A stretch of 64,000 bases of DNA from Paraburkholderia azotifigens (GTDB lineage: Bacteria; Pseudomonadota; Gammaproteobacteria; Burkholderiales; Burkholderiaceae). The DNA is taken from assembly GCF_007995085.1 (NCBI RefSeq), contig NZ_VOQS01000005.1:2480001-2544000 (forward strand), given 5' to 3'. Under the pieces are notes generated by a model. The model ran no database searches. It had not been told where the DNA came from and saw nothing but the letters and a program-made list of their open reading frames with translations. This document shows positions 3,130-53,078 of the stretch, one piece after another. The position numbers and the translations under genes were made by a program. Every line of letters starts with the position of its first letter. The first letter of the stretch is position 1.

Positions 3130-3165
3130 ACTGTTAAAACCACCTCTTTGGGGAGTCGAGTAATT

Positions 3166-3743: not shown

Positions 3744-4223
3744 ATGAAGCGATTCGAACCCAGTTTCTTCGACAAGCTGTTCGACGACGAACCGCATCTG
3801 CCGGCGCCCGCCGCGATGCGGCAATTGTCGCTGGAAGAATTGAAGTCGAATGTCGCGCGCGATGTCGAGGCGATCCTCAATACGCGTATCGCGTTGACGG
3901 ACGCCGAACTCGCCGCGTTGCCGGAGTGCCAGCGCTCGGTGCTCACGTATGGCCTGAACGACTTTTCGGGTTTGAGTCTCGCGAGTCACTACGATCGCAT
4001 GTTCATCTGCAAGTCGATCCAGCAGGCGATCGGGCGGCACGAGCCGCGTTTGCAGCAGGTCGCGGTGACGCTCGAATTGAACGAGCAGTCGACCAATGCG
4101 CTGTACTTTGCGATCCAGGCTTTGCTGGTCGTGCATCCGGCGGAAGAGCCGGTGAGTTTCGACGCGATGCTGCATCCGTCGACTTTGCAATACTCGGTGA
4201 CGCGCGCACGCGCGAAGCTGTGA
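3744..4223 (+). CDS. tssE: Type VI secretion baseplate subunit TssE
   Basis: TssE is the gp25-like baseplate wedge protein that starts sheath assembly. The 159-residue product has the N-terminal region with FDKLFDDEP, a central helix SVARDVEAILNTR, and the gp25-type segment SVLTYGLNDFSGLS around residues 55-70. The ribosome binding site is weak; GAGG lies rather far upstream. It sits 74 bases after hcp and 55 bases before tssF, the standard order for Burkholderia clusters. Confidence 0.94.
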   Translation: MKRFEPSFFDKLFDDEPHLPAPAAMRQLSLEELKSNVARDVEAILNTRIALTDAELAALPECQRSVLTYGLNDFSGLSLASHYDRMFICKSIQQAIGRHEPRLQQVAVTLELNEQSTNALYFAIQALLVVHPAEEPVSFDAMLHPSTLQYSVTRARAKL

Positions 4224-4278
4224 TACCGCGCGCCTGCTTGCAGGCCGAAGCGGAAAGATCTGGCTCGGGGATGGAGTA

Positions 4279-7166: not shown

Positions 7167-7206
7167 CGGCCACACAGAACCACACGAAAACATCGGACAG
7201 TACGCC

Positions 7207-9858
7207 ATGAGCACGCCATTGAAGACCCTGATCGCCAAACTCAACCCGACGTGCCGTCTGGCAACCGAGCAGGCCGCGAGCCGCTGCCTGTCGCGCGGCC
7301 ACTACGAGGTCGATCTGGAGCATCTGTTCGGCGCCTTGCTCGACGAAGCCGCAACCGACGTGCCGCTCGTGTTGCGCGCGAGCGGCATCGATCTCCATGC
7401 GCTGCGCAGCGATCTCGAACACGAACTGGAACGCCTGAAAACGGGTAATACGCGCACGCCCGTTTTCTCGGTGCATCTGATCGCGCTGTTCGAGCAGGCG
7501 TGGCTGATTGCTTCGCTCGATTCGCAGATTGCGCGTATCCGATCGGGGCATCTGTTGCTTGCCCTGCTGAGCGAGCCGGATCTCGCACAATTCGCGCAGC
7601 GTATGTCGCCGCTCTTTGCACAGGTGCGCGTCACCGAGTTGAAGCACAAATTCGATGAGCTGACGCAGGGCTCGCGTGAGAGCGAGGCGACGACGTCGAC
7701 AGAAAGCGCCGAGTCTGCCGATCACAGCGCGCGCGTCGATGCACCGTCGAAAACGTCTGCGCTCGACACGTACACGACCAACCTCACGCAACGCGCACGC
7801 GACGGTCGCATCGATCCCGTGATCGGCCGCGAAGCGGAAATCCGCCAGACGATCGATATCCTGATGCGTCGCCGCCAGAACAATCCGATCATGACGGGTG
7901 AAGCGGGCGTCGGCAAAACGGCTGTCGTCGAAGGGCTCGCGCTGCGCATCGCCGTCGACGACGTGCCGCCGCCTCTGCGCGGCGTCGCGCTGCATGTGCT
8001 CGACATGGGGCTGTTGCAGGCGGGCGCGAGCGTGAAGGGTGAGTTCGAGAATCGCCTGAAGAGCGTGATCGGCGAAGTAAAGAAGAGCGCGCATCCCATC
8101 ATCCTTTTTATCGACGAAGCGCATACGATCATCGGCGCGGGCGGCACGGCTGGCCAGAACGATGCGGCGAACCTGCTGAAACCGGCGCTCGCGCGGGGCG
8201 AGTTGCGCACGATTGCGGCGACGACATGGAGCGAATACAAGAAGTACTTCGAGAAAGATGCGGCGCTTGCGCGGCGCTTCCAGGTCGTGAAGATCGAAGA
8301 GCCGGGTGAGGCGCTGGCAGCGGCGATGTTGCGCGGCATGGCGGCGCTGATGGAGAAGCACTTCAACGTCCGCATTCTCGATCAGGCCATTACGGAAGCG
8401 GTGCGGCTGTCGCATCGCTATATCAGCGGACGTCAGTTGCCGGACAAGGCGATCAGCGTGCTCGACACCGCTTGCGCGAAGGTCGCGCTTGCGCAAAGCG
8501 CAACGCCCGCGGCCATCGACGACACCAGCAGGCGGATCGAACGCATCGATGCAGAGATTGCCGCATTGGAGCGCGAAGCGGCGAGCGGCGCAACGCACGA
8601 TGAGCGGTTGACAGAACTGCGCGAGCAACGCGCGACCGGGATCGAGCGGCTCGAACATGATCAGACGCGATACGAAAAGGAGCGTGCGATCGTTGGCGAA
8701 ATCGTGGCGTTGCGCGAACAGATCGACGCGTCGCGTGATGGCAAGGGCAATGCCGATGAAATCGCCAGTGCGCGCGAAGCGCTTGAACGCCGTGTGGCGG
8801 AACTCGCAGAATTGCAGACATCCACGCCGATGGTGCCGTTGCAGGTGGACGCGCATGTCGTCGCTGAAATCGTCGCGTCATGGACGGGCATTCCGCTGGG
8901 CCGCATGGTGAAGGACGAATTGCGCACCGTGCTGAATCTTCAACCGCTTTTGACGGCGCGCGTGATCGGCCAGGATCATGCGCTCGAAGCGATTGCACAG
9001 CGTGTGCGTACTGCAAGCGCGAATCTCGAAGACCCGAACAAGCCGCGCGGCGTATTCATGTTCGTCGGGCCATCGGGTGTAGGCAAGACGGAAACGGCAC
9101 TCGCGCTGGCCGACATTCTTTACGGCGGCGAGCGCAAGATGATCACGATCAACATGAGCGAATATCAGGAAGCGCACAGCGTATCGGGACTCAAGGGTTC
9201 GCCGCCGGGTTATGTCGGTTACGGCGAAGGCGGTGTGCTGACGGAAGCGGTGCGGCGCAATCCTTATTCCGTCGTGCTGCTCGATGAAGTGGAAAAGGCG
9301 CATCCGGATGTGCTGGAAATGTTTTTCCAGGTGTTCGACAAAGGCACGATGGACGATGCCGAAGGACGCGAGATCGACTTCCGCAATACGCTGATCATCC
9401 TGACATCGAATGTCGGTTCTTCTGCCGTGATGCAGGCGTGCCTGAACAAGAGCGCTGAAGAACTGCCCGGCGCCGACGCGCTCGCGGAGATGCTGCGTCC
9501 GCAGTTGTACAAGGCGTTCAAGCCCGCGTTTCTGGGCCGTATGAAAGTGGTGCCGTATTACCCGATCTCGGACGACGTGCTCGCCGAGATCATCGAACTC
9601 AAACTCGAACGCATCCAGCGCCGTATCGAGGCGAATCACAAGGCTCGCTTCGAGTGGGATGAATCGCTGGTCGATGCCGTGCTCGCGCGTTGCACCGAAG
9701 TGGATTCCGGCGCGCGCAATGTCGATCACATTCTGAACGGGACGCTGCTGCCGGAGATCGCCCAGCAAGTGCTGGAACGAATCGCGGATGGCGCGCCCAT
9801 CAAGCGGATCGGCGCACGCGCGACGGAAGCGGGCGAGTTCGACTACACCGTTGCCTGA
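7207..9858 (+). CDS. tssH: Type VI secretion ATPase ClpV/TssH
   Basis: ClpV is a cytoplasmic AAA+ disaggregase that recycles contracted TssB/TssC sheath. The 883-residue protein has an N-domain (1-150), a first ATPase domain with Walker A GEAGVGKT near residue 232 and Walker B ILFIDEAHT, a middle coiled-coil (residues about 440-540, rich in Glu/Arg), and a second ATPase domain with Walker A GPSGVGKT near residue 620 and VVLLDEVEKAH. Both nucleotide sites look intact. The length is typical of T6SS ClpV and its place in the operon separates it from the general ClpB. Confidence 0.97.
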   Translation: MSTPLKTLIAKLNPTCRLATEQAASRCLSRGHYEVDLEHLFGALLDEAATDVPLVLRASGIDLHALRSDLEHELERLKTGNTRTPVFSVHLIALFEQAWLIASLDSQIARIRSGHLLLALLSEPDLAQFAQRMSPLFAQVRVTELKHKFDELTQGSRESEATTSTESAESADHSARVDAPSKTSALDTYTTNLTQRARDGRIDPVIGREAEIRQTIDILMRRRQNNPIMTGEAGVGKTAVVEGLALRIAVDDVPPPLRGVALHVLDMGLLQAGASVKGEFENRLKSVIGEVKKSAHPIILFIDEAHTIIGAGGTAGQNDAANLLKPALARGELRTIAATTWSEYKKYFEKDAALARRFQVVKIEEPGEALAAAMLRGMAALMEKHFNVRILDQAITEAVRLSHRYISGRQLPDKAISVLDTACAKVALAQSATPAAIDDTSRRIERIDAEIAALEREAASGATHDERLTELREQRATGIERLEHDQTRYEKERAIVGEIVALREQIDASRDGKGNADEIASAREALERRVAELAELQTSTPMVPLQVDAHVVAEIVASWTGIPLGRMVKDELRTVLNLQPLLTARVIGQDHALEAIAQRVRTASANLEDPNKPRGVFMFVGPSGVGKTETALALADILYGGERKMITINMSEYQEAHSVSGLKGSPPGYVGYGEGGVLTEAVRRNPYSVVLLDEVEKAHPDVLEMFFQVFDKGTMDDAEGREIDFRNTLIILTSNVGSSAVMQACLNKSAEELPGADALAEMLRPQLYKAFKPAFLGRMKVVPYYPISDDVLAEIIELKLERIQRRIEANHKARFEWDESLVDAVLARCTEVDSGARNVDHILNGTLLPEIAQQVLERIADGAPIKRIGARATEAGEFDYTVA

Positions 9859-35049: not shown

Positions 35050-35922
35050 CTATGTCGGGGATGCTACGGTCCTTCTTTTCAAATCCTGAAGGGTAACCCC
35101 GTCCGCATTTTTCCAGTCGAGCCACCCGTTGCACGTGGTCCCGCAAACCACAGCCGACGCCCCGCTAGGAGAAGTGAAGAGAACGTCTTCGTTGAATACG
35201 AGTACGCCATCGCGCAATGCGATTTTCCCCTGTTGAAGGAGACCCTCTCGAAGCCGGAAGAACGAATGTCCCTGGAACCCACGTCCGACTTCGGCTTTCC
35301 CTACCGAGTCCTTATACACAACGAATCCTTCATCCGTATAGCAGCCGCGAGCCATTGAGCCGGAGCGCCTGCAAAACAGCGTGTCGTCTTGAGACTCGCC
35401 ACTCGTGGGCTTGGCAACCGGCTCGAAAATTGGGTAGCCGAGTGATGTGACCAAGGTTCGTGCAGATTCGAAGAGTTCCATGCAGTCAGCAGCGAGAGGC
35501 AGAGGCGTGTGCGACCTTGTCCCTTCATTGCGGTTCTCGGTTATGTAGCGACCGGCATTTTTTGACGCTTGAATGAACAGATTCTCAAGGTAGAGTACGT
35601 GAGTGGAGGTGAGGCTTTCCGTCTTCGTCGTGAGGACGAGGGCACGCTGCCAGAAGTCTTTCTCCTTGTTGTGCGCGTGTAGACGCGACCGCACGTCGCC
35701 GCTCTGCCCAATGTATATCTGAGTGCCGGCACCATCCTCCTGTTCGCCTATCAGGAAATAGAGTGACATCCGTTCACTCTCATCCATCGCCAGAAAGTCT
35801 GCAAGCCGGCTTCTTGGAACATCGATAGCCTGCACGATACGAGTAGTGATTTCGGCCATCCGGATGCCACGCGGGTCACCGTTCGGAAGGAAGATTTGAA
35901 TGGTTTGGGGACGGTAAGTCAT
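35050..35922 (-). CDS. GIY-YIG nuclease-domain protein with DUF4357-like C-terminus
   Basis: The 290-residue protein starts at the ATG at 35922 with GAGG upstream. The GIY-YIG-like signature is spread over residues about 50-105 (MSLYFLIGEQEDGAGTQIYIGQSGDVRSRL; catalytic-type Tyr and Arg and later Glu-Asn in YLENLFI). The C-terminal part ends with WLDWKNADGVTLQDL, as in DUF4357-type domains (substrate or partner contact). It is the next minus-strand gene after tniQ, 165 bases on, and is probably cargo of the Tn7-like element. Nuclease activity was not proven and it may act as an anti-phage or restriction enzyme. Confidence 0.75.
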   Translation of the reverse strand: MTYRPQTIQIFLPNGDPRGIRMAEITTRIVQAIDVPRSRLADFLAMDESERMSLYFLIGEQEDGAGTQIYIGQSGDVRSRLHAHNKEKDFWQRALVLTTKTESLTSTHVLYLENLFIQASKNAGRYITENRNEGTRSHTPLPLAADCMELFESARTLVTSLGYPIFEPVAKPTSGESQDDTLFCRRSGSMARGCYTDEGFVVYKDSVGKAEVGRGFQGHSFFRLREGLLQQGKIALRDGVLVFNEDVLFTSPSGASAVVCGTTCNGWLDWKNADGVTLQDLKRRTVASPT

Positions 35923-36086
35923 AGGGCCTCTAAGTGACCGCGACAGCTCGCTTTGTCTGGAATTGCGACGCTGCAATGCGTAGTCACTTGAGTAGCGACC
36001 GGATTTTATCCGGGGGAGGCGGGGCTGCGAATCTGGGCCATGGGACAACGATTTCCGACGATCTCACGGTCAACGTCCTAGAATGA

Positions 36087-36968
36087 CTAGAATGACACAA
36101 GGTGATCGAAAAGGATGTTCAAGAGGATGTGCTTCGTGGTGTTGAAAGGAAACCTTGAGGAAATCAAAGGCACGGATCTGCGGGGATCCAAAATGACACT
36201 TCGTCGCACGACGACCCAGTCGAAATTCACGCGGGAAAGGTACTCTGGTCCGTAGAATGCCTTGAGCGCGGCGAACACTGGATTCTCAGATGGATCGGAG
36301 AGATGTGTGCCGGCAAGCATCTGCAATAGTTGGCTGTATTTCGAAACCTGAGCTTCCACGCTCCATGTCCGCCCTTGGAGGCATTCCAACGAAGCGGACG
36401 AGACCTCCTCAGTCAGCAGGGAGGCTATAGCCTGGTCTGCGGTCTTGCTCGGCATTTCTGCCGGGAGAGCGTCGCGAATGGATGACAGCAGTACTTGGGC
36501 CTCACGCAAGGGATGTTGGTGGATGCGGCAACTGAATATTCCCGGAAGCAGGTGTTGCCGGTGCCAGTAAGGTTCACCATACTGTTTCGCGTCCTCGGCC
36601 GCACAATCATCGCAATAGCGGACGAAAAACTGCCTTTGCCGAACGTCACCCGCAAGGTAGTTGAATTTCGTGAGCAAGCTGGCTGAGAATTCCAGTTCAA
36701 TCGAATGATGCAAAACATCTCTCACCGCTGGCGACATAAATGCGACCACGTAGGGGAAAAACGTATGGCGATACAACAAGTCATTGAGCGGGATCCGGGT
36801 CAACCTGGAAAGCGCCGACAGCCCAAACGGTCGAACGAAGTTGATCTGTCCGGGATTCACTCTCAGGTAGTGGCGAATGAACGAGGGCAGGTCGTAACCT
36901 ATGTGGCGAGCCGCCCGTATCAGCAGACTTGCGGTTGGCTCGTCTGGATACGGGCGCGGAAAGTACAC
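36087..36968 (-). CDS. tniQ: TniQ/TnsD-like target selection protein
   Basis: The 293-residue protein starts MYFPRPYPDEPTASLLIRAARHIG, the start typical of the TniQ family, and has a zinc-binding type segment FFVRYCDDCAAED...YGEPYWHRQHLLPGIFSCRIHQHPL. TniQ links TnsC to the chosen target. It is shorter than Tn7 TnsD (about 500 residues), more like TniQ of Tn5053- or CAST-type elements. The start is GTG and follows the tnsC stop within a few bases, so the last gene of the tnsABC-tniQ operon is translationally coupled. Confidence 0.85.
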   Translation of the reverse strand: MYFPRPYPDEPTASLLIRAARHIGYDLPSFIRHYLRVNPGQINFVRPFGLSALSRLTRIPLNDLLYRHTFFPYVVAFMSPAVRDVLHHSIELEFSASLLTKFNYLAGDVRQRQFFVRYCDDCAAEDAKQYGEPYWHRQHLLPGIFSCRIHQHPLREAQVLLSSIRDALPAEMPSKTADQAIASLLTEEVSSASLECLQGRTWSVEAQVSKYSQLLQMLAGTHLSDPSENPVFAALKAFYGPEYLSRVNFDWVVVRRSVILDPRRSVPLISSRFPFNTTKHILLNILFDHLVSF

Positions 36969-36970
36969 GT

Positions 36971-38617
36971 CTAGCTCAATTCGAGCAGTTCGTCGAGGTC
37001 ACAGACGTGTCCCATCGCATCAAGCTGTGCGAACACGGTTGTCTTGCCGTCTCGAGCTGCTGCAATAGCGTTCCGATAGTCATCGGGTGGGAGTTCGGCG
37101 GCCGATTTCCTCTGGTCCGCAGCCCCTTCTTTCGTTGCCTTTGTCTTTTTGGGAGGCTTCACCTTATCGAGCGCGGCCTGAGTGCCATCGAGCAGATTCT
37201 TGGCTTTGCCGTCGGTTTCAACAGAAGACGCAATCTGCGAGGCGAGTTCTGCATCGATACCCATTGCCTTGAGCGTTGCCGTAATAGTCGGGACGAAATC
37301 GCGGTGGCCCGGACGTACGAACTTCTCGCGAACTCGAACGCCTTCGTACCGATTCAGCGCATTGTCCAGAAGTTTTTCAGACTTGAGCGGGGCAATGTCG
37401 TGATATTTATCGAGGGCCTCAGGGTCGTTCAAGCGATACGCGTCCATCATTGTGTGGATGAGCTCGAAATCTCTTTTCCATACCTGCTCAATCACCTGCG
37501 CCGTAATCGTTTCGCTTTGGTCCAGTATGCATTGCCACTGGACGCTCGCGAAGAGTTTGACGGCAATGTCGGTAATTCCCTGACTATGGTGGAACATCAG
37601 GTCAGAGAGGGACTGTGTCAAAGGAACAGGGTTGTGCAACCATTGGAAGGGCCACACGGTGCTTATGAAATCTTCCCATTCGTCGGGCTTTTTGAGGTCC
37701 GAACTCCTTTGTAATGCAGTCCAGTTATAGATAGCGTTTCCAACTGAACGCCGAGCTGGACTTGCGTCGAGCCCCAGCACGTTTGCGGCACGGTTCGTTC
37801 CGACGAACAGGATGGGTACACCAAGTTCGTTGGATGCGGAAACGAGGAGAGCCATCATTTTTTCCATGCTCTTGCCACCATTCTTGAGATTCTGAATCTC
37901 GTCGGCGACAAGTAGACCCACGCAATGCGTATGCATCAGGCGCGCAGCGTGGTTAAGAAGTGTTTCGGCAGAGTATGACTTCTTTCCGAACCTTTCATAG
38001 TAGTTTCCGTCGGGGATGAGCCGGTCAAGCTCCCGGAGAATCGAAAATGCAAGACCCTTGGTCGATACTCCGTCATGCGGAGCTTCGATATGCAAGTAGG
38101 TTATTTGTGTAATATCCAAATCTGGATGGTAGATTACCTGCGGATACAGGTTAAGAATACGCTTGAGACTCGAGGTCTTCCCGACGCCTGAAACGCCAAG
38201 GAGGGCACTTGAGAGCTGGGCGGTTGCATTCTGCTTGGTACGGACACTGAAAGGCGCATTCGCCTTGCGCGCTTCATAGAGCTTCTGGTATGTCCTTGTG
38301 TGGCTTGCCGTCCGAGGCACGCGGGCGACGTAACCCTGTCGTACAAGCATATCGACAGCCCACCCTAGATGGACGTGTCGATTCAGCACGACCATGCTGT
38401 CCAAGAGTTCCGAAACCATATGAATACGCTCGTGAGCAGGCCAGGTCCGCTGCACGCTATCGAACTCGGGAAGGTCGAATAAGTCGACTCCCAGACTCTC
38501 ATAGTCGAGCAAAGGCGGTAATGCCTCGATGAGTGCGTTGTCCTTGTACCGTGGAATCCGTGACTGTGTGTAGACGGCCGTCACAGCGTTCGGGTTGATG
38601 TTACTGTGTGCGTGCAT
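36971..38617 (-). CDS. tnsC: TnsC-like AAA+ transposition regulator
   Basis: The 548-residue protein has the AAA+ ATPase core with Walker A LLGVSGVGKTS (140-149, Lys147) and Walker B GLLVADEIQN (234-243), followed by a sensor-like FVGTNRA. TnsC forms ATP-bound filaments on DNA that connect TniQ to TnsAB. The long N-terminus (about 130 residues) and the Lys-rich C-terminus (KPPKKTKATKEG) probably hold partner-binding parts. The ATG at 38617 overlaps the 3' end of tnsB by 17 bases, showing coupled expression. Confidence 0.93.
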   Translation of the reverse strand: MHAHSNINPNAVTAVYTQSRIPRYKDNALIEALPPLLDYESLGVDLFDLPEFDSVQRTWPAHERIHMVSELLDSMVVLNRHVHLGWAVDMLVRQGYVARVPRTASHTRTYQKLYEARKANAPFSVRTKQNATAQLSSALLGVSGVGKTSSLKRILNLYPQVIYHPDLDITQITYLHIEAPHDGVSTKGLAFSILRELDRLIPDGNYYERFGKKSYSAETLLNHAARLMHTHCVGLLVADEIQNLKNGGKSMEKMMALLVSASNELGVPILFVGTNRAANVLGLDASPARRSVGNAIYNWTALQRSSDLKKPDEWEDFISTVWPFQWLHNPVPLTQSLSDLMFHHSQGITDIAVKLFASVQWQCILDQSETITAQVIEQVWKRDFELIHTMMDAYRLNDPEALDKYHDIAPLKSEKLLDNALNRYEGVRVREKFVRPGHRDFVPTITATLKAMGIDAELASQIASSVETDGKAKNLLDGTQAALDKVKPPKKTKATKEGAADQRKSAAELPPDDYRNAIAAARDGKTTVFAQLDAMGHVCDLDELLELS

Positions 38618-40904
38618 TTACAAGCTCCATTTGTTTCAATCGTAGTTTTTCCTGGAACGAGAGCGGACGCGCTGGTTCAGTACTGGTGGCATCCGCTCCA
38701 GCGGGCAATGATGAAGTACCTGATGAGGTGCCAGAAGGCACGGACGGCACTGTGTCAGTTGTAGGGCAACGGGAGTCCTGCGCGTGCAGTGCGGCGGCGC
38801 TTCCAACGAGAGTCGGCGACAAGTCGTCGGACGTCGGCAAGCTAATTGCGGCTTCGCCAGCCCGTCGTTGGGCACGTTCCTTGTTGCGGTCCTCAGCAAT
38901 ATCGCGCTTACGGGACGCTCGAGACTTCCCAGCAGACGCCTTCTTGGTCGCCGCACGCGCCGGCTTGGCAATATCTGATATGGTCGTGTGCAGCTGCACC
39001 CGCTGTCGCCGGTCTTCGTTTTTGTTGGCCCGTTGAGTGGCAACTGCCTCATTCTCTACGAAAGCGACTTCAGCGAACGAATACCCGTTATAGGAGGTAC
39101 TTCTTGGGGTGAGCTCGCAAAGGTAAGATTTTCGGCCGTTCTTTTCGGTGTGGACGACAACTCCATTGACCAGACGCCGGTCATACGACACCTCAACGTC
39201 CCATCGCCCTCTGTTTTTTGCCGTGATGAACCAGCCGAGCTGTTCGAGTTCTGGACAAGAGTAGTAGCAGCCTTTGAATAGAATACCGCTCTCTGTGACG
39301 GTGGCTTTATCACGGGGAAGGAGCTGAAGGCGCAGGTAGTCTTCGGTGTAACGTGAAAGCATGCCAGCAGAACGCGACATGTCATGTTCCCAGATGTCGA
39401 TTGGCGTCGGAGGTAATCCTTGCAAGACCATTGCGGGTGTCATGCCGTAGTTGGGCATGAGCGATCGGTTGTGCTTGATGATGGCCGCAAGAACGATTGC
39501 AATGAACTCGTCCAAGGTCAAGCTTGCATCCTGGTCGTATTTCTTCCCACGGCGGCGCATGAGGTTTCTGGCTGGTTCATAGCCGGGCGTATCCATTGCA
39601 ATGGATTGGTGCAGCAGTCTGAAGCCGCATTCGACAGTGCCCTTGTTCTGCGGCGTCAAAGGCGGCGCATTGGAAATTGTGCTTTCCATGCCCACGCAAA
39701 TGCGGTTGCTGTTCCGGGAGATCATCTCCCCACAGTCACCGAGGAATTTCTGCGGAAACATGCCATGAGCGGGCCAGTCGCGCGGGTCGTACTCGATGCC
39801 GTGCTTGAGGCAAAGCGCTTCCTTGTCTTCGGCGATACTCAATATCGCCTGCATCGCGGTTTCCCATCCTGGGTTTTCTAGTCCCACATAGAATCCGACG
39901 CAGAGGCGGCTGAACCGATCGTAGATGAGGTAGAGCGTTGGCTTTCCAATAATCTTCGAGCGATTGTCCATGGCGACGAGATACACGTCAGCGATCGTGG
40001 CGTCGATCTCGTAGATGTGCCCGACGCACTTCGCCTCATGGAGCGCGCCGACAATTTTGTGGTTATGATCCCGCTCAAAATCGCTGTTGCCTTTCTTGCG
40101 GCGCAGAATCTCCTCAGTAGTAAGGCATCGTTTGACAACTGTCAGGAACTGCCGGTATGTGGGGCACTCCCCAAAATCCTTCGGAAGGCTTTTCCCGTTG
40201 CTGTCCAAATATGAATAGTGCTCGGCGAGCATTGCATGGTATGCACCCGCGAGCGTGGCCACGTCGCCGGTCAGATAGTGCTTCTTAACGGCGGCTTTAA
40301 TATTGACGTCATCGACCTTCGGGTCCATCTGATAGGTCTTGTACCACCCTTCGACCGGTGCGCGGCCCCGGCCGTGTGTTTTGCCTGACTGTTTAAGACC
40401 AATGTTCGGAAAATTTGCTATAAGCGCCTGTTTCGACTGACCTCCGCGCCAGTACGTGCGGAGATGTTTGTATATGGTGGTTCTCGACGCACCCGTGCTT
40501 TCTGCCCGCTCGGTAACCAAGGGGCCGCGCAGCTTTGGATGAAAGATTGCGGGATTCTTAACGAGCGGTTCAATGATGTCCCACGCCTCCTTCAACCGGG
40601 CATCAGCGGCCTTTGATTTGAACGGGAGCTGGCCATCGCCTGTGTTCGTCACAACGGTGAATTCTTTCGCCACGAGCGATTCGAGGAGTAGTGTGTAACG
40701 GCATTCGCGAGGCCAGCCGTCTTTATCGCTCACGTTGATGATCCACGCACTCCCGTCTTCAGCAACTTCGAGCAATCGGAAGCGTGGACCGCCCGCGCGC
40801 TCAAACAGGTCATTTTTGACAAGGGTTGCGGGGGCAACGGATCTCACCGGCGAGTGTGTCGGAACGACGAGCGCGTTGCCTGTTAGCGTGACCGACGTGT
40901 CCAT
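38601..40904 (-). CDS. tnsB: TnsB-like DDE transposase
   Basis: The 767-residue protein has a retroviral-integrase-type catalytic core with the DDE residues at D301 (IYEIDATIADVYLV), D390 (FLGDCGEMIS) and E425 (NKGTVE); D390 and E425 are 35 residues apart, as expected. N-terminal helix-turn-helix parts (ESTGASRTTIYKHLRTYW) would bind the element ends, and the C-terminal tail is disordered. It makes the 3' strand cuts and joins. The ATG overlaps the tnsA stop as ATGA. Confidence 0.94.
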   Translation of the reverse strand: MDTSVTLTGNALVVPTHSPVRSVAPATLVKNDLFERAGGPRFRLLEVAEDGSAWIINVSDKDGWPRECRYTLLLESLVAKEFTVVTNTGDGQLPFKSKAADARLKEAWDIIEPLVKNPAIFHPKLRGPLVTERAESTGASRTTIYKHLRTYWRGGQSKQALIANFPNIGLKQSGKTHGRGRAPVEGWYKTYQMDPKVDDVNIKAAVKKHYLTGDVATLAGAYHAMLAEHYSYLDSNGKSLPKDFGECPTYRQFLTVVKRCLTTEEILRRKKGNSDFERDHNHKIVGALHEAKCVGHIYEIDATIADVYLVAMDNRSKIIGKPTLYLIYDRFSRLCVGFYVGLENPGWETAMQAILSIAEDKEALCLKHGIEYDPRDWPAHGMFPQKFLGDCGEMISRNSNRICVGMESTISNAPPLTPQNKGTVECGFRLLHQSIAMDTPGYEPARNLMRRRGKKYDQDASLTLDEFIAIVLAAIIKHNRSLMPNYGMTPAMVLQGLPPTPIDIWEHDMSRSAGMLSRYTEDYLRLQLLPRDKATVTESGILFKGCYYSCPELEQLGWFITAKNRGRWDVEVSYDRRLVNGVVVHTEKNGRKSYLCELTPRSTSYNGYSFAEVAFVENEAVATQRANKNEDRRQRVQLHTTISDIAKPARAATKKASAGKSRASRKRDIAEDRNKERAQRRAGEAAISLPTSDDLSPTLVGSAAALHAQDSRCPTTDTVPSVPSGTSSGTSSLPAGADATSTEPARPLSFQEKLRLKQMELVNARTQ

Positions 40905-41752
40905 CAGCTACCTCCCGCGGCGTCGAGGACGCCCGCAGGAGCGCTGCAGCGGAAGGTCGAAAGCGGAGCAGTTGCGAGGTCTGGATTAGTCAGGTCGCAC
41001 AGCAGGGTTCGCTCATACATGAGCAGCTTCGCGACGCGCAGCCCCTCTGCCGGAGACATACCATGGCGGATTTCAAAGTTCGCGCAGTACTCATTGAGCG
41101 GCATGTTACGCGTAGAGTTGGCCAGTTCGTGGGCCATGATGCGTGACTTCTCGCGGAAGTAGCCCGGATAACGCTCCTGTTCCCCCGACTTGATGAGTCC
41201 GCTACGCATCCATTCGATGTTGCGGATATGGGTTTTCGGTAGTCGCGAGTGGAAAACGAGCCGATGCGGCACGTCCATGCCGGCGAAGTAAGTCCGGGTG
41301 ATTTGCAGTTTCTCTATTGCGTGAGTATCTTCGGCGGCTTCGGTCCGTTTGCAGTCGATGGCCTCGTAGCCTGGGACACCGTTCCTGACGACCTTGCAGA
41401 ATAAGTCGACGGTCATTACAGTCGGAACATCTGTACCCGGGTAATAAGGGTGGCGAATGTTGAGGTATTTGGCGATTTCGAGTGTGATTTCCCGGTCGAG
41501 CGGGTACTGTTCTCGCGCGTCGAGCACACGTTGCGAGTACTCAGCGGCGTAGAAAGTGTCCCGCTCGACATCGGACATCAAATGAATAGTGCGTCCGAAC
41601 CGCGCGCTTTCGGTGCGTTCGACGCGCCCTATGGACGAAAAATCGAACACCTCCAGCCAAGGTTTGTACTTCGGACCTTCGCCCTTACCGCGACCTTCCT
41701 TCTGCCACTGGGCGATGAGCGCCTCAGTCATCTTCTTCGGTCCACGTCCCAT
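40904..41752 (-). CDS. tnsA: TnsA-like endonuclease
   Basis: TnsA cuts the 5' strands of the element to allow cut-and-paste movement. The 282-residue product carries the restriction-enzyme-like fold: YSQRVLDAREQYPLDREITLEIA, TVDLFCKVV (Asp116) and YEAIDCKRTE (Lys135), in the order of Tn7 TnsA catalytic residues. A C-terminal winged-helix part is likely. GGAGG precedes the ATG at 41752. It is the first gene of the tnsABC-tniQ operon. Confidence 0.92.
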   Translation of the reverse strand: MGRGPKKMTEALIAQWQKEGRGKGEGPKYKPWLEVFDFSSIGRVERTESARFGRTIHLMSDVERDTFYAAEYSQRVLDAREQYPLDREITLEIAKYLNIRHPYYPGTDVPTVMTVDLFCKVVRNGVPGYEAIDCKRTEAAEDTHAIEKLQITRTYFAGMDVPHRLVFHSRLPKTHIRNIEWMRSGLIKSGEQERYPGYFREKSRIMAHELANSTRNMPLNEYCANFEIRHGMSPAEGLRVAKLLMYERTLLCDLTNPDLATAPLSTFRCSAPAGVLDAAGGS

Positions 41753-45960: not shown

Positions 45961-46793
45961 GGTTTCCGAAATGGACGAGCATCAGAACGGCAAAGATGAC
46001 GAAGTGAAGCCCGGCAAGTGTTTCTGGCAAGCGCTCGTAATCGCGCGCGAGTCGACGAAAGCGATTCAACCAGCCGAAGCTGCGCTCTACAACCCAGCGG
46101 CGCGGCAACAGGACAAAGCCCTTTTTCGCTTCCGCCAGTTTGATCACTTGAAGCTCAATTCCCTCGTCAAGCGCGGCCTGCGCAGGTTCCTCGCCGGTAT
46201 ATCCCTGATCGGCAAACGCGACTTTCACTGTCTGGCCGGTGGCCTGCTGGACCTGACGCGCAAGCTCGCCGACCTGTGCACGCTCCTGTTCATTGGCTGG
46301 TGTTACATGCACAGCAAGCAACTGCCCCAGAGTATCGACGGCCATATGGACCTTGCTGCCTTGTTTGCGCTTGTATCCGTCATAACCGGCTCGCGGCCCG
46401 CTCTCGCACGTCGACTGCAGCGTGCGCCCATCGAGAATCACCGCGCTGGGCTGCCCCTGGCGCCCCTGTGCGACTCGTATGATCGAACGCAAATCGCTGA
46501 CCATGGCCTCGAAACAACCCGCCTGAATCCAGCGTTGCGTTTGCTGATAGACCATCTCCCACGGCGGGAAGTCATTGGGCAACAGGCGCCAGGGTGCACC
46601 CGCGCGCACGATCCAGCGAAGCGCGTTGAACATTTCGCGCAGTTCGTATCGACGCTGCGGTGCGTCTTTGTTCATCAAGGTCAAATACGGCGCGGCGAAG
46701 TGCCATTCTTCATCCGATACATCCGTTGGGTAGGGGCGGCGTTTGCTCATTCCGCCAGGTTACCAGGTTTGGCAGCAAGTGCCTAACACGCTC
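45937..46793 (-). mobile_element. IS5-family insertion sequence (IS427-type)
   Basis: An 857-bp element with inverted ends GAGCGTGTTAGGCACTT (left) and its complement AAGTGCCTAACACGCTC (right), flanked by TA on both sides (45935-45936 and 46794-46795). The element carries a single transposase gene. The ends and TA duplication fit the IS427 group of IS5. Confidence 0.9.
45944..46750 (-). CDS. IS5-family transposase
   Basis: The 268-residue transposase has the DUF4096-type N-terminus ([35 protein letters not shown]) and the DDE core: [22 protein letters not shown] and [16 protein letters not shown]. The product seems complete. It acts on the ends of its own element. The start ATG at 46750 gives the typical [10 protein letters not shown] start. 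Confidence 0.96.
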
Positions 46794-46818
46794 TAGAGAG
46801 ACCTCGAGGCAGAGAACA

Positions 46819-48009
46819 ATGACATTTGTCGTCCCTGCAGAGTACGGTGGCCGCGAACAGGCGCTGGTCAAACATGAGTTACTCAAAAGTTACCTTGAGA
46901 AGCTGGTGCTCATCATCGGAATGAGCGCAAAACGGAGCGGCAAGGTTGAAATCTGTTATGTCGACTGTTTTGCCGGCCCTTGGGGCGCGCGAGGGGAAGA
47001 TCTCGATGGAACGTCCATTTCGCTCTCGCTTAGTCTTCTTGCTGTCACCAAGCTGGCCTTGGAGAAGCAAGGCGTGAAATCCAGGATGAGGGCACTGTAC
47101 GTGGAGAAGGGGAAGCAAGCCTTTGCCCGGTTATCGACCTACCTTCGGGAGCGCGCACCCTCGTCGGTTGAGCACGATTGCCGCAATGGCGACTTTCTGG
47201 ATCTTCAGGCGGAAATTCTCGATTGGTGTGGTCCAGATGCGTTCACGTTCTTCTTCGTTGATCCGAAAGGCTGGAAGGAGATCGGGCCAAAGAAAATGGA
47301 GCCCCTATTGCGGCGCCCCCGTTCCGAATTTCTGATCAATTTTGCGTTCAACAACATCAATCGTACTGTTTCGATGGATGCGTGGCAGGACGACATGAAG
47401 GAATTGCTGGGGGCAACTGTTGAACTCGAGGACATGCTGCCAGCCGACAGGGAAGAAGCGCTCGTCAACGCTTACCGCACGGCCTTGACACGGCGCGTGC
47501 CCGCAAAGCATTCGAAGTATCGCGCGCGGACAGCGTATGTCACGGTTCTCGATCCCTTGCAACAGCGGACAAAGTACCACCTTGTATACCTGACAACGCA
47601 TCCACTGGGCATCGTCAAGTTCATGGAAATTTCGGAACACGTCGATGCAGTTCAAAAGAAGGTGCGAGCGGCCACCCGGTTCGATGCGCGAAGTAAGGAA
47701 ACCGGCATGCTGGATATGTTTGGTCCTTCTCCTGATGCCGCCGAAGGAGCCCGGGAAAATGGAAGATTGCCGGTCGATGTCGACAACTACTGGCGCACCT
47801 ATCTCGCCGACGGTGAACGACTGATCGACACAGATGCGTTTGCTGAAATCCTTGAGCAGACCAACTGGTTACCATCGGAGCTGCAAGCGTCACTAGTGAG
47901 GCTGCTGAAGGCTGGTGAACTTCGAAACCTTGATGCTAACGCAACTACTCGATACAAGCGGCCGCTGCACTTTGAAGCGAACGAGCGATTGCAGCTGATT
48001 AAAGTCTGA
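46819..48009 (+). CDS. tcmP: Three-Cys-motif partner protein TcmP
   Basis: The 396-residue protein is the TcmP family member: it opens KHELLKSYLEKLVLIIGMSA, then a nucleotide-binding or methyltransferase-like segment YVDCFAGPWGARGEDLDGTSISLSL, and FTFFFVDPKGW. TcmP proteins occur beside DUF5131 (three-Cys-motif) genes, as here. GAGG stands 10 bases before the ATG. The gene is downstream of the IS5 element and lost its presumed coupled upstream gene. Biochemistry is not known. Confidence 0.9.
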   Translation: MTFVVPAEYGGREQALVKHELLKSYLEKLVLIIGMSAKRSGKVEICYVDCFAGPWGARGEDLDGTSISLSLSLLAVTKLALEKQGVKSRMRALYVEKGKQAFARLSTYLRERAPSSVEHDCRNGDFLDLQAEILDWCGPDAFTFFFVDPKGWKEIGPKKMEPLLRRPRSEFLINFAFNNINRTVSMDAWQDDMKELLGATVELEDMLPADREEALVNAYRTALTRRVPAKHSKYRARTAYVTVLDPLQQRTKYHLVYLTTHPLGIVKFMEISEHVDAVQKKVRAATRFDARSKETGMLDMFGPSPDAAEGARENGRLPVDVDNYWRTYLADGERLIDTDAFAEILEQTNWLPSELQASLVRLLKAGELRNLDANATTRYKRPLHFEANERLQLIKV

Positions 48010-48265
48010 CGCGTCGGCGCTGTCCGGCGTTGCAATTGTGACCGATATAGTCGACTTCGGCGCTCCATCCGAGGTCGTTGCGTTACAGCGTCAGTCTTGC
48101 CATTTAAAACCGGCAGCTACACGGACAAAGCGGGAACGGTTGCCGATCGCGTCACATGCGTAGACCGGTGCTACGGTGCCGCAGCCTCCTGTTCGATGTA
48201 CGGATTGTGTCGACGACGCGATCCGCAGCGGTACAATTCCGGGTAAAAGAGAATGGAGCTACAAA

Positions 48266-49015
48266 ATGAGCGGCGGACAGAGCAAGATTGAGTGGACAGA
48301 GCGGACGTGGAATCCAACCGTTGGCTGCACGAAGCTGTCGCAAGGATGCAAGAACTGCTATGCGGAGGGTATGGCTCATCGGTTGCAGGCGATGGGTACG
48401 CCCGGCTACGAAAACGGCTTCCACCTGACGCTGCTGGAGAACCGGCTGGACGAGCCTTTGAACAGAGCAAAGCCGACGGTCTACTTCGTCAACTCCATGT
48501 CTGACCTTTTTCATCAGTCGGTGCCAGATTTGTACATCACGCGGGTTTTTGACACGATACGGGCGTGTCCTCAACACACCTTCCAGATACTCACGAAGCG
48601 CGCGGAGCGGCTCGCAAGTTACTGTGGGCGTAATGATATTCCGACCAACGCCTGGCTGGGGGTGTCTGTGGAAGACAAGCGGCATGGCGTCCCACGTATT
48701 GACCATTTGCGCCAGGTGCAAGCCGGTATCCGCTTTCTTTCGGTCGAGCCGTTACTCGAGGACCTTGGGAAACTGGACCTGCGCAACATTGACTGGGTTA
48801 TAGTAGGCGGTGAGTCGGGACCCAAGGCGCGTCCGATGAAGTCCGGATGGGTCGAACGGGTGAAGGTTCAGTGTGAGAAGCAAGGTGTCCTCTTCTTTTT
48901 CAAGCAGTGGGGCGGCTGGGGCGCTGACGGCGTCCGACGTTCCAAGAAAGCTAACGGTCGACTGTTTGATGGTCAGACTTGGGACGCGATGCCGGACCCG
49001 ATGGCTTTGGCATAG
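48266..49015 (+). CDS. DUF5131 (phage Gp37/Gp68-like) three-Cys protein
   Basis: The 249-residue protein carries KIEWTERTWNPTVGCTKLSQGCKNCYAE, the Cys-rich motif with cysteines spaced as in this radical-SAM-like family, and NSMSDLFHQ and VSVEDKRHGVPRIDHLR. Members are found in phage and with TcmP. GGAG precedes the ATG at 48266 by 7 bases. It is 256 bases after tcmP on the same strand. The pair probably modifies a nucleic acid or a protein; that is inference from family descriptions. Confidence 0.9.
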   Translation: MSGGQSKIEWTERTWNPTVGCTKLSQGCKNCYAEGMAHRLQAMGTPGYENGFHLTLLENRLDEPLNRAKPTVYFVNSMSDLFHQSVPDLYITRVFDTIRACPQHTFQILTKRAERLASYCGRNDIPTNAWLGVSVEDKRHGVPRIDHLRQVQAGIRFLSVEPLLEDLGKLDLRNIDWVIVGGESGPKARPMKSGWVERVKVQCEKQGVLFFFKQWGGWGADGVRRSKKANGRLFDGQTWDAMPDPMALA

Positions 49016-49179
49016 AGCGGTCGTTCAGGCGAGGATGATTTGGCGAGAGTGCTTAACGCGCTCGGGCTGATACTCTCTAGAACCAATCCGAGCGGTGTTG
49101 ATCCGGCGTGACGATCGGTACTCTTTCAGGGGCAGGTGTTTCCAGCGGCCAGACATCACATGAAAATGCGATGATGCGT

Positions 49180-50723
49180 TCAAGCTATAGTGAGCACGTT
49201 GAATAATTGCGAACTCTGCACGCATAGACCAAACAGGCGGGCCGCCGCCGCTGCTTTGCGGATTTCGCTCGCAAGCGCACCAACCGCTAGTTTTGGACGC
49301 CCGTCCATCGTGTCAAGCACCACCTCTTGGGACCATGATTCAAGCTCATACGACAGGATCTCCAGATTGTCGACCAGAAGCCTCGATCCCATCGAATAGA
49401 TTGGTAGTCCTCCGTTCATAGACAAATCTAACAACGACCATGCAGCATGCAACCGCTGAGCGTCGGTCAGGTCGTTGTGGTAAGCCAAAGATCCCATCAA
49501 CTTGCGCCTTTGCAGATAGATGGTGGCAAGCAGAATCTGCGTGTCCGGTATGCCCGGATGTTGGGTCGCCAGGTTCTGGATCCAGGCAGCCCAACCCTCG
49601 TAGGGGATGGCCTGTGCATCTGAATGGACGATGACGTATCCCGCAATGATCGCCGCGTATGGGTTCGTGATCTCCGATGCAAAGATTTCCGGGCGACCTT
49701 CCAGGAGCTTCAGTGCTCTGTGCATATCACCTTGCATGAAGTAGCCGACGATCGATTGGAGAATTCCGTCGGTCAATCGGAGCCTGAGATTCCAATTTCC
49801 CGTCTGGTAATTCCATCTATCGTCTATCTCTGCGACGACGCTGCTTCGGTCCCAGCTAAGCGGCACAAGAGCCAGTTGCTCTATGCCCTGTTCGCCTCTA
49901 GCGACGATGTAGCGTTGTCGATACCACTTTAGCCGCTTGAGTCGCGCCCCCTGCCGATGTAGCAAGGGCCATAAAGCGTCGTGCGATCGCGCACTGAGCA
50001 AGCCAGATCGCAATGATTCGTCGACTGATTGCATTCTGACGATATCGTCCGTTTGGGGAACCAGGAATGAGTTAGCCCAACGTGAAACAGACGCACGATC
50101 GGAGAGCGTCTGCCACAGGCGATCTACATCGAACGAGGTGCTTACGACGTCATAGACCATCCGACGCGCCGGGTGTGGGTGACGTCGGGTTTGTATCGTG
50201 GGGCCCGTATAGGCGCCGAGAAGGTTTTTCGTGGCAGGCTGTGCCGCGACCTGCAGGAACGACTTCTGGCGGGGGGAATCTGCTGGAACTGATAACCAAG
50301 GGCCGTCCGCGTCGCCACAGGAAGCGTTGACGGAAGGGCAGCGGGCGATATTGTCCGTCGGGGCTCCCGGGGGCCCTCGAGCGCAGAAGGCGTCGTGCGA
50401 AACGTGTATCGTTGGCTCGGAAGCGAGATATTTGGCCCGGACAACACCACCCTTGCGACACCCGCTGATGGGACATTGACGATCTGAGTGAAGTGGCGGC
50501 CGTCCGGCAAAGCTGCGGAAACCCGATAGCGTCCAGCGGTCAACTGCACATCGGTTTCGCCCAGACCTGCGTCCACAAATATAGGCACGTCTGTCAGGAC
50601 GGGCCGGCCAAAGGTGGACGAGCCCTCGTCCAATAGAGCGATGTCAGCTAAGGCGGTCGTCTGCAAGTCAAAGCGTGCGGTCTCGACGTCGACAGGCGAT
50701 ATCGCAATTTCCAGCTTACTCAA
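49180..50723 (-). pseudogene. Two-domain partner of the caspase gene, broken at a G6/C6 tract
   Basis: Two minus-strand frames (50142-50723 and 49180-50160) appear to be one gene. The first encodes a beta-rich domain of about 100 residues (start MSKLEIAISPVDVETARFDL). The frame after the tract reads R-Q-K-S-F-L-Q-V-A-A-Q-P-A-T-K-N-L-L-G-A-Y-T-G, runs without stop into M-V-Y-D-V-V-S-T-S-F-D-V-D-R-L-W, and is clearly protein-like. Adding one C to the tract (plus-strand G6, 50271-50276) joins both into about 514 residues. The second part is helical, resembling a repeat protein (MHRALKLLEGRPEI, QILLATIYLQRR). The gene starts 4 bases after the caspase stop. It may be inactive, phase-variable, or a sequencing error. 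Confidence 0.65.
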
Positions 50724-50727
50724 TTCG

Positions 50728-51894
50728 CTACTCCATCGGGATTCTGACTACGGCGATTGGCGGACGAGCATCTTTCGTAACGGTACCCTGGCATGGCGTT
50801 GAGAGATTGCACGCGGCATGGAACGTGTAGCTACCAGGAGAGAGATCAAGAATCCAGCGATGATCGGGCTCCGTCGCATATGGTTGCCGCGTCTTGACGT
50901 CTATTCCGGACGCGTCTTGGCAGGACAGCGATGCGCCCGCCGAATATTCGTCAGGGTCACAACGGACCACAACAGGTATGCTGAAATCGTCCCCAAACTT
51001 GTGCAATGTGAACGTCTTGCCAACGGGTTGGCCAGATTCGGGCTCCTGGTCGACTCCTGTCACTACAGCGAGATACTGCGCCATGGCGTACTGGATGCTT
51101 GAAGCCGTCGCCACCATGCCTTCACTACGGGCGTCATAAATCGCTGCGCCTCCCTTCATACTCTGAATGAACGTGGTTGCGAAGACCGAGGGGGCGCCAT
51201 ATAGTACCCATGCTTGCGCACCACCGGCGGTTGCCCACAAAACCGACTGCGAAACCGCCCCGAGATCGTCTGGAGCGCGCCGTGCAACGATTGCGTTCCC
51301 GAATTCGGTGAAGTTATTGGTGAACGCTGGTAAAGGCGCTCGACAGGTATCCAGCAAGAATAGTTGGCGATTTGCGGCACACGTCCGCATTCCCCGTTCG
51401 AGGCCTTCGTAGTGTATCGCGTGGTCAAAAGGTGCGAGATCGTGGGCTCCGAAATCCGAGCAGAGCAGACTGTGATTCCCTTCCGAATGTCGCATTCCGT
51501 GGCCGCAGAAATAGAAGACAAGAAGGTTGTCTGGCGACAGCTGTCCGAGTTTGTACCAACGCTCAATGGCTTTCCGGACGTTGCCAAACGTCGGTTGCTC
51601 ATAATCGGTGGTCGTAACGTCTGCGGCGCCCGCTGCGCGGGACGCGAGAACGTCCACGCTCTTGACAGTGAATCCTCGGTTACGGAGGTTGCCATTGGCA
51701 AACCATTCACCTAACAGTTTGCAAGAATGAGTCGGTGCATCCAGCACGCTAAAGCCCGCGCCTAGTTCCCTATGCGTACCATCTTCCTCATGCAGGTATT
51801 CGTATCTATCGACACCAATTAGCAGGATGTGAATTCCGGGTGTAGTGTCCCCGGTCGGTGGTTCGACAATATAGGTCATTATTCGAGAAGCCAT
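50728..51894 (-). CDS. Caspase-family (C14) cysteine protease
   Basis: The 388-residue protein has a caspase-like core: GIHILLIGVDRYEYL near residue 20, the catalytic His132 in FYFCGHGMRH and catalytic Cys184 in LFLLDTCRAP. After the core comes a C-terminal beta domain of about 90 residues (DFSIPVVVRCDPDEYS, LDLSPGSYTFHAAC, IAVVRIPME). The ATG at 51894 is used; an ATG at 51879 is possible. It forms an operon with the partner gene, divergent from the MBL gene across 77 bases. Bacterial caspases in such islands often cleave partners to kill an infected cell; here that is inference. Confidence 0.85.
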   Translation of the reverse strand: MASRIMTYIVEPPTGDTTPGIHILLIGVDRYEYLHEEDGTHRELGAGFSVLDAPTHSCKLLGEWFANGNLRNRGFTVKSVDVLASRAAGAADVTTTDYEQPTFGNVRKAIERWYKLGQLSPDNLLVFYFCGHGMRHSEGNHSLLCSDFGAHDLAPFDHAIHYEGLERGMRTCAANRQLFLLDTCRAPLPAFTNNFTEFGNAIVARRAPDDLGAVSQSVLWATAGGAQAWVLYGAPSVFATTFIQSMKGGAAIYDARSEGMVATASSIQYAMAQYLAVVTGVDQEPESGQPVGKTFTLHKFGDDFSIPVVVRCDPDEYSAGASLSCQDASGIDVKTRQPYATEPDHRWILDLSPGSYTFHAACNLSTPCQGTVTKDARPPIAVVRIPME

Positions 51895-51971
51895 TGTGAG
51901 CGGAGTGATAGTCTCACAACGTGGGCTGGATGCCCATAGATGATTTGAATATCGAAACTCACAGGTACTGA
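51895..51971. promoter_or_regulatory. Divergent promoter region between the caspase and MBL genes
   Basis: The 77-base gap must hold the start sites for both directions. It is moderately AT-rich. AGG before the MBL start is a weak ribosome binding site. No regulator sequence was recognised. Confidence 0.4.
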
Positions 51972-53078
51972 ATGAGCTTAAAAAATAAGGAAAGCATTTT
52001 TCGCCTGCGCGTGCTCGCCGCTGGAAACGGAGATGCGCTCTGGATTGAGTATGGCGATTCCAACACCCCTCAGCATATCCTGGTCGATGCGGGCACCCAA
52101 GGTACCTCGACGGCCGTTCGAGCAGAGTTGAGGAAGGTAGCAAAAGCCGACGCGTCGACGAGCCACAGGCTACTAGTCATAACCCATGTTGACGAGGATC
52201 ACATCGGAGGCGCGCTTGCGTTGATGGAGGATCCCGCCATCGCCAGTCAGTTTGATGAGGTCTGGTTTAACGGTTGGAAGCATCTGGAGCAAGCGCCGGG
52301 TTTGCGTTCGTTGGGAGCAGTGATGGGAGAGCGCTTGAGCGCAGCTCTCGAAAAGGCGCCCGGTCGATGGAACGCTTCGTTTTCCGACGGTCCGGTTATG
52401 CGCAACCTTGATGGAGCGGCGTGCACGAAGCTTTTCGGGGCTGCCACGCTAACAATTCTGTCGCCCAGTGCGGAGGAACTCCGCAAGCTCAAAGGCAAAT
52501 GGGCGGCGGAGATTATTGCCGCTGGTTTGGTACCGGGAGCCCTGCCGAGGAAAGCGACGCTGGGCCCACCCGGGTTGGTGCCACTGGGCGGGATTGACGT
52601 AGACCGCTTGGCCGGCCAGCAGGAGAAGGAGGACACGGCCGAAGCGAACGGGAGTTCCATTGCCATGCTCGTCGAATTTGAAGGAAAGAGGCTTCTTCTC
52701 GCCGCCGACGCTCATCCATCCGTGTTACTGGCGGGCATCCGGCAGGTCGCTACCGCGGGCAAGCTCACGGTCGATGTGTTTAAGGTTGCGCACCATGGCA
52801 GCGCTAAAAACGTAACCGATGAGCTGCTCCAGGCGCTCGAGGCGAAGGTCTTTGTCTTCTCCTCAAACGGTTCACGTCATCATCATCCTGATGCACAGGC
52901 TGTCGCGAAGATCATACGAGCGTACAAGGACCGCGACATAGAACTCGTCTTTAACTATGAAACGCAATATACGCGGGTCTGGAAAGACGCAGCCCTGCAG
53001 CGAAAGTGGGGCTACCGGGTTCGATATGGAAACAACGACGAAGGGGTGACCGTCGATCTTCTCGATTGTCCCGCCTGA
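51972..53078 (+). CDS. MBL-fold metallohydrolase (ComEC/Rec2-like type)
   Basis: The 368-residue protein starts with the MBL pattern: RLRVLAAGNGDALWIEYGDS, LVDAGTQG, then the metal-binding motif VITHVDEDHIGG (His72, Asp74, Asp76, His77), LLLAADAHPS and FKVAHHGSAKN. The ending with HHHPDA and FNYETQYTRVWKDAAL is as in the ComEC-like subgroup. It is probably a soluble nuclease or phosphodiesterase. It faces away from the caspase gene, sharing the promoter region, which suggests linked roles. Confidence 0.85.
   Translation: MSLKNKESIFRLRVLAAGNGDALWIEYGDSNTPQHILVDAGTQGTSTAVRAELRKVAKADASTSHRLLVITHVDEDHIGGALALMEDPAIASQFDEVWFNGWKHLEQAPGLRSLGAVMGERLSAALEKAPGRWNASFSDGPVMRNLDGAACTKLFGAATLTILSPSAEELRKLKGKWAAEIIAAGLVPGALPRKATLGPPGLVPLGGIDVDRLAGQQEKEDTAEANGSSIAMLVEFEGKRLLLAADAHPSVLLAGIRQVATAGKLTVDVFKVAHHGSAKNVTDELLQALEAKVFVFSSNGSRHHHPDAQAVAKIIRAYKDRDIELVFNYETQYTRVWKDAALQRKWGYRVRYGNNDEGVTVDLLDCPA

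What the first reader, a model, noticed from the sequence alone, without database searches (positions are those of the whole stretch)
49180..53078. Caspase with two-domain partner, divergent from an MBL-fold hydrolase: candidate conflict or cell-suicide system
Seen: a caspase-family protease (His132, Cys184), a partner gene starting 4 bases after it, and across a 77-base shared promoter region an MBL-fold hydrolase with an intact HxDxDH motif. Known: bacterial caspases and MBL hydrolases are found as effectors or activators in several anti-phage and conflict systems. Inference: the arrangement of a protease, a partner of beta and helical domains, and a divergent nuclease-like MBL protein in a mobile island suggests a defence unit in which the protease could activate or release a toxic enzyme. 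I know of no described system with this exact set.
Basis: partly seen in the sequence, partly recalled or inferred. Interest (0 to 1): 0.75.

Follow-up and report, generated by a model that had tools for sequence, protein, structure and literature searches.

The report
Rearranged caspase–nuclease (Canu) defence locus
These three bacterial genes belong to Canu, a recently published phage-defence system in which a caspase switches on a DNA-cutting enzyme; this copy is unusual in gene order, has a partner gene broken into two reading frames, and has an altered presumed cut site.

Summary
Caspase, partner and MBL hydrolase match CanA, CanB and CanC of Canu (Tuck et al., Science 2025, PMC12799240), where a caspase–partner complex converts a gated MBL pro-nuclease into a DNase that stops phage T4. 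The neighbourhood is conserved: 38 of 80 related MBL genes have CanB upstream on the same strand, 35 of 80 also CanA. CanA and CanC have Massilia and Rugamonas Canu loci as nearest relatives. This copy departs in three ways. canC is divergent from canAB, unlike every other canB-linked locus I examined. canB is read in two frames, changing in or next to its disordered linker. Both gating loops of CanC lack the acidic residue three before the conserved glycine, present in both loops of 45 of 45 canB-linked relatives and 4 of 4 added later. Otherwise CanA and CanC are no more degraded than several relatives, and their catalytic residues are intact. I read it as a rearranged Canu locus, either decaying or re-tuned; sequence alone cannot decide. 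New variant of a known kind.

The parts
50728..51894 (-). canA: caspase-family protease, 388 aa, catalytic His132/Cys184, C-terminal beta-sandwich domain (about residues 304-388)
50142..50723 (-). canB, first piece: N-terminal beta-sandwich domain, then an out-of-frame tail
   Evidence: CanB profile (built without the window) E 3.1e-9, profile positions 17-123 at 50666-50262; none of 2000 shuffles as high
49180..50160 (-). canB, second piece: C-terminal helical domain, in a different frame; overlaps the first piece by 19 bases; no clear Shine-Dalgarno by eye before its ATG
   Evidence: CanB profile (built without the window) E 1.2e-33; 30% identity to Rugamonas CanB over 216 residues
50142..50470 (-). 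zone in which the canB reading frame changes; mostly the stretch that corresponds to the disordered linker of the relative's CanB
   Evidence: codon usage favours the first frame down to about 50470, is ambiguous to about 50210, then favours the second frame; first-frame profile match ends at 50262, second begins at 50049; linker 91-171 pLDDT under 50 in the model of the Rugamonas CanB
51895..51971 (.). 77-base gap between the divergent canA and canC starts
   Evidence: ORF coordinates; no sigma-70-like site found inside
51972..53078 (+). canC: ComEC/Avs1a/LmuA-like MBL-fold pro-nuclease, 368 aa, metal ligands intact
   Evidence: PADLOC LmuA 222 bits; NCBIfam Avs1a 211.5 bits, under its cut-off of 420; solved ComEC MBL domain 9ic4 E 1.8e-13 with the family profile; sister to Massilia/Rugamonas CanC, support 93/89
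52293..52334 (+). gating loop 1 of CanC (residues 108-121): R112-S-L-G115 where canB-linked relatives have [E/D]-x-[F/L/M/Y]-G
52566..52610 (+). gating loop 2 of CanC (residues 199-213): V203-P-L-G206 where canB-linked relatives have [E/D]-x-[F/L/M/Y]-G

Best explanation
This is a rearranged Canu (caspase-nuclease) anti-phage locus. In the family, CanA (caspase with an Ig-like tail) and CanB (beta domain, flexible linker, helical domain) form a complex that responds to phage infection; CanA then cuts CanC in two loops that cover its active site, and freed CanC degrades DNA, which kills or arrests the infected cell. That chain is published, or proposed in the paper's model, for KaeCanABC and is inferred here by homology. 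In this genome one inversion of the canAB segment would turn the usual A>B>C operon into <B <A C>, putting the nuclease on its own transcript. canB has changed frame in or next to its linker, and both CanC loops have lost the acidic residue three before the glycine. Shown here: homology of all three proteins, conserved neighbourhood, frame change in this assembly, loop change, intact catalytic residues. Inferred: the inversion, phage sensing, cutting at the loops, and whether the copy is active.
For: The paper describes the same three-gene set and mechanism. Canu order in 38 of 38 canB-linked CanC loci among the 80 kept and in 7 of 10 fetched plasmid caspase loci. L017 Massilia and L018 Rugamonas are the top two relatives of window CanA and CanC; L018 is the top relative of the CanB C piece. 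CanC joins L017/L018 at 93/89; CanA groups with L002, L017 and L018 at 98. MALT1 is the top fold match of CanA, as published for KaeCanA. CanC matches ComEC-type MBL nucleases and has the two loops with conserved glycines. A CanB profile built without the window matches both partner pieces.
Against: KaeCanABC itself was not in hand for a direct comparison. canC is not downstream of canAB. canB is broken in this assembly. For CanB the kinship with L017/L018 is weaker: L017 is seventh for the C piece, and the N piece has its best hit elsewhere (L005, E 2e-4) and no good hit to either. The presumed cut-site motif departs in both loops. The Ig-like nature of the CanA tail rests on a predicted beta-sandwich and Foldseek alignment, not on a clean domain match. 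Activity is untested.
Confidence: 0.9

Rival explanations
1. A decaying Canu remnant: the rearrangement uncoupled canC, canB was then broken, and the loops drift because cleavage is no longer selected. The locus no longer defends.
For: Frame change in canB; loss of the loop acid in both loops; long CanA branch, 2.06 against a median of 0.31. Other damaged or partial copies exist: CanA only as a fragment in L086 and as two short pieces in L011; in L013 CanB runs into a CanC without its N-terminal part; L116 shows only a C-terminal CanB stretch and no CanA.
Against: CanA and CanC are full length with catalytic residues intact; phi-G is kept in both loops. Control: window CanA departs at 12 conserved positions, but 6 of the 41 other rows depart at more and one at as many; window CanC departs at 10, with 7 of 45 others at more and two at as many. 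So the two proteins are not unusually degraded outside the loops.
Confidence: 0.35
2. The frame change in canB is an assembly error, and the real locus is an intact Canu with a divergent canC.
For: A single frame change in an otherwise open gene with intact neighbours; the assembly is in 5 contigs with 4.59% estimated contamination.
Against: No reads or near-identical copy to compare: the C piece matched 3 of 299 family genomes, own included, the other two at 29% identity. It does not explain the loop changes.
Confidence: 0.3
3. The MBL gene is a stand-alone nuclease of another system (AVAST, Lamassu, Hachiman or DRT type) that happens to lie beside a caspase pair.
For: Divergent orientation; its loops (RSLG / VPLG) lack the acid typical of canB-linked CanC and look more like the xLLG loops of some MBLs without CanB.
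Against: Its closest relatives are CanC of Canu loci, which are also the closest loci of its neighbour CanA; of the five neighbouring ORFs scanned, none matches an LmuB, HamA/B, Avs or reverse transcriptase model.
Confidence: 0.07

Closest known systems
Canu (CanABC), Klebsiella aerogenes prototype, Tuck et al. 2025, PMC12799240
   Same: Caspase nearest in fold to MALT1, partner protein, ComEC-like MBL nuclease with two gating loops holding conserved glycines
   Different: Nuclease gene divergent instead of downstream; partner in two frames; loop motif lacks the acid found in the canB-linked relatives examined here; direct sequence comparison with KaeCanABC not done
Canu loci of Massilia eburnea (L017) and Rugamonas sp. 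(L018)
   Same: Top two relatives of window CanA (31%) and CanC (45-46%); L018 is the top relative of the CanB C piece (30%)
   Different: Collinear A>B>C, CanB in one ORF, acidic loop motifs, and a second caspase-like gene plus a small gene upstream of canA
AVAST type 1, Lamassu, Hachiman and DRT systems with MBL nuclease plus trypsin-like protease
   Same: Homologous gated MBL nuclease
   Different: There the activating protease is trypsin-like and fused to a core defence gene (as the paper states); no such core gene among the five neighbouring ORFs scanned

Membership tests
Canu | Caspase-family protease (CanA) structurally close to MALT1 | tested here: met
Canu | C-terminal Ig-like fold on CanA | tested here: inconclusive
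   A seven-strand beta domain after residue 304 is predicted; Foldseek alignments to the listed MALT1 chains run 427-451 columns, but the VIA rows stop at about residue 300
Canu | MBL pro-nuclease (CanC) homologous to ComEC/Avs1a/HamM nucleases | tested here: met
Canu | Two insertions over the CanC active site, each with a conserved glycine | tested here: met
   Two loops with G115 and G206 at the conserved columns. That the loops cover the active site was not modelled here. The acid three before the glycine, present in 45 of 45 canB-linked relatives, is absent
Canu | Third protein CanB beside CanA | tested here: inconclusive
   CanB profile matches both pieces, but they lie in two frames in this assembly
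Canu | Typical, not defining (the paper calls the loci variable in organization): nuclease gene downstream of the caspase gene | tested here: not met
   canC is divergent; 38 of 38 survey loci with CanB and 7 plasmid loci are collinear
Canu | Caspase-dependent activation of CanC and phage defence | not testable with these tools
   needs a bench test
AVAST type 1 | Avs1a at curated cut-off, with protease and STAND partners | tested here: not met
   211.5 bits against a cut-off of 420; no other Avs model among the five neighbouring ORFs scanned
Lamassu | LmuB (SMC-like) gene beside LmuA | tested here: not met
   LmuA-type MBL only; no SMC or LmuB match among the five neighbouring ORFs scanned

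The most novel reading that the evidence does not exclude
A re-wired, working Canu: the nuclease has its own divergent transcript, CanB is made as two translationally coupled proteins split at its flexible linker (the two ORFs overlap by 19 bases), and the caspase's cut-site code has changed in both CanC loops at once, so this CanA would have a different specificity from the rest of the family.
Probability: 0.2. Interest if true: 0.6.

Novelty: new variant of a known kind. Interest (0 to 1): 0.4.

Why it matters
Canu is a bacterial parallel to caspase-activated DNase in animal apoptosis. The survey adds a testable rule: in the canB-linked CanC proteins examined, both gating loops carry the same kind of motif, [E/D]-x-[F/L/M/Y]-[G, rarely N/S/A], while homologues without a CanB hit carry other loop motifs, by eye often also matched between the two loops. 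That suggests each nuclease is keyed to its own protease by a paired cut-site code. This locus is the natural exception in both loops, and its gene order suggests that nuclease and protease genes need not share a transcript.

Tried and rejected
Rejected: a new kind of system (Canu is in print). Rejected: Lamassu or AVAST membership despite strong MBL hits. Considered and dropped: a CanB-CanC fusion in L013; the ORF lacks about the first 98 positions of CanC, so it looks like a deletion. Considered: inversion by the 15-nt inverted repeat at 49138-49152 / 52014-52028; the right arm lies inside canC, so re-inverting it would not give A>B>C; treated as chance. Looked for a compensating change in CanA: none of its 12 departures at conserved positions replaces a conserved basic residue; inconclusive. 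Those 12 departures, W260M among them (40 of 41 others have Trp), seemed to speak for decay until the control: 6 of 41 other CanA rows have more.

Limits: the scan kept 80 of 331 relatives; 10 of the 22 plasmid caspase records were fetched (L117, fetched later with the MBL as query, is also one of the 22). Of 66 plasmid MBL records six were fetched through that search. Of the 42 survey loci without a CanB hit, neighbours of only 9 were checked by Pfam, and several of the 42 are cut short by contig ends. The 3 canB-linked loci without CanA (L028, L091, L093) have CanB at the very start of the DNA held. The loci are related, so counts such as 45 of 45 are not independent; the loop-2 motif was taken by a regular expression, loop 1 by alignment column. 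CanA of L086, a fragment, was dropped from the CanA alignments.

Full report
What is there. On the minus strand lie a caspase-family ORF (50728-51894) and, 4 bases on, a partner; 77 bases away on the plus strand lies an MBL-fold ORF (51972-53078). The caspase matches Pfam Peptidase_C14 (E 1.3e-6) and keeps His132/Cys184, invariant in an alignment with 31 relatives. The MBL protein keeps HxDxDH (H72, D74, D76, H77) and H274/H275; it matches PADLOC LmuA (222 bits) and, below the cut-off, NCBIfam Avs1a (211.5 of 420 bits). With the family profile its nearest solved structures are ComEC MBL domains (9ic4, E 1.8e-13).

Partner gene. It is not one ORF. With a CanB profile built without the window, the first piece (50142-50723) matches positions 17-123 (E 3.1e-9) and the second (49180-50160) positions 172-381 (E 1.2e-33), in different frames. 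Codon usage favours the first frame down to about 50470, is ambiguous to about 50210, then favours the second. Of 2000 shuffles of the first 100 N-piece residues none scored as high (1079 listed, best 7.7 bits against 24.5). In a model of the Rugamonas CanB (pLDDT 72.1), residues 91-171 after the N-terminal beta domain have pLDDT under 50, so the frame change falls in or next to a linker and each piece still covers the domains on its side.

Neighbourhood. A plasmid search with the caspase found 22 records; 10 were fetched, and 7 of 10 have caspase, partner and an MBL 33-40% identical to the window's in one collinear row. A scan of GTDB genomes with the MBL alignment found 331 relatives, of which the best 80 were kept. 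CanB is found upstream in 38 of 80 and CanA in 35 of those 38; all are on the same strand as the MBL, with at most 370 nt between the CanB and CanC profile matches. Of later loci, L014, L109, L116 and L117 are collinear too. None is divergent like the window. CanA and CanB lie in one ORF in L040, L066, L075 and L117. Rarity: an MBL match at E <= 1e-20 in 9 of 399 genomes of the order and 5 of 144 of the genus, the window's own included in both; in the genus only the window's own is below E 1e-100, and the four others show no CanA or CanB on the DNA held.

Same unit. Massilia eburnea L017 and Rugamonas L018 are the top two relatives of window CanA and CanC; for the CanB C piece L018 is first, L002 second and L017 seventh; the N piece is too diverged to rank (best hit L005, E 2e-4). 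In a careful tree of 35 rows window CanC joins L017/L018 with support 93/89; in a quick tree CanA groups with L002, L017 and L018 with support 98.

What is odd. (1) Divergent canC; a single inversion of canAB in an A>B>C operon would give it (inference). (2) The frame change in canB. (3) The gating loops. In 45 of 45 canB-linked relatives both loops have the acid of [E/D]-x-[F/L/M/Y]-[G, rarely N/S/A]; among 42 without a CanB hit 11 have it in both loops. Four more canB-linked loci (L014, L109, L116, L117) also have the acid in both loops. The window has RSLG and VPLG. I did not see such a rule in the text read; the paper's sequence logos were not available to me.

Control on decay. At columns conserved in at least 80% of the other rows, window CanA departs at 12 (6 of 41 others depart at more, one at as many) and window CanC at 10 (7 of 45 others at more, two at as many). 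So outside the loops the two enzymes look no more degraded than several relatives. The doubly lost acid is therefore a rather specific change.

Reading. Membership in the Canu family is strong (0.9). Whether this copy works is open: decay, assembly error and re-tuning all remain. Intact catalytic sites and the control argue against long decay; the broken canB and the doubly altered loops argue against an ordinary working copy.

Noticed in passing
window 36087-41752 (-): Tn7-like transposition genes TnsA, TnsB-like (Mu-transpos_C), TnsC/TniB-like and TniQ; transposon ends not found, so it is unknown whether the Canu locus is its cargo.
   Followed up: partly
window 35050-36048 (-): DUF4357/RAMA-type protein matching PADLOC candidate defence family PDC-S14, E 1.1e-104.
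   Followed up: no
window 46660-49015 (+): Three-Cys-motif partner TcmP and DUF5131 genes converge on canB; they match PADLOC candidate systems PDC-M30/PDC-M41.
   Followed up: no
window 1604-9858 (+): Type VI secretion genes (VipB, TssF, ClpV-like AAA) at the start of the window (ClpV is my reading of the AAA/Clp domains).
   Followed up: no
L017:1220-3082, L018:1402-3264: A second caspase-like protein of 620 aa (Pfam C14 in L018), preceded by a 216-236 aa gene of unknown kind, lies directly upstream of canA in the two closest Canu loci; a candidate extra layer in the cascade.
   Followed up: partly
L008:7947-14594 (Bradyrhizobium plasmid): CanA followed by a 1788-aa protein with a CanB region, trypsin-like domains and a PLD domain, with no CanC match on the DNA held: possibly a Canu with a swapped, fused effector.
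   Followed up: partly
L117:275-8174 (Bosea plasmid): Two TIR genes, a CanA-CanB fusion, CanC and a second caspase in a row on one strand.
   Followed up: no
L035, L096: CanC-like MBL genes next to CHAT-domain proteins instead of CanA/CanB (weak match in L035), in line with the paper's remark on other protease families.
   Followed up: no
CanC homologues without CanB, e.g. L021, L024, L046, L100: By eye their two loops often carry a matched pair of other motifs (such as LLG/LLG), as if each protease partner had its own paired cut-site code.
   Followed up: partly
L116:4479-6077 (Agrobacterium plasmid): CanC preceded by only a C-terminal CanB stretch and no CanA match: another partial Canu locus, whose annotated sequence recurs in many walnut Agrobacterium plasmids.
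   Followed up: no
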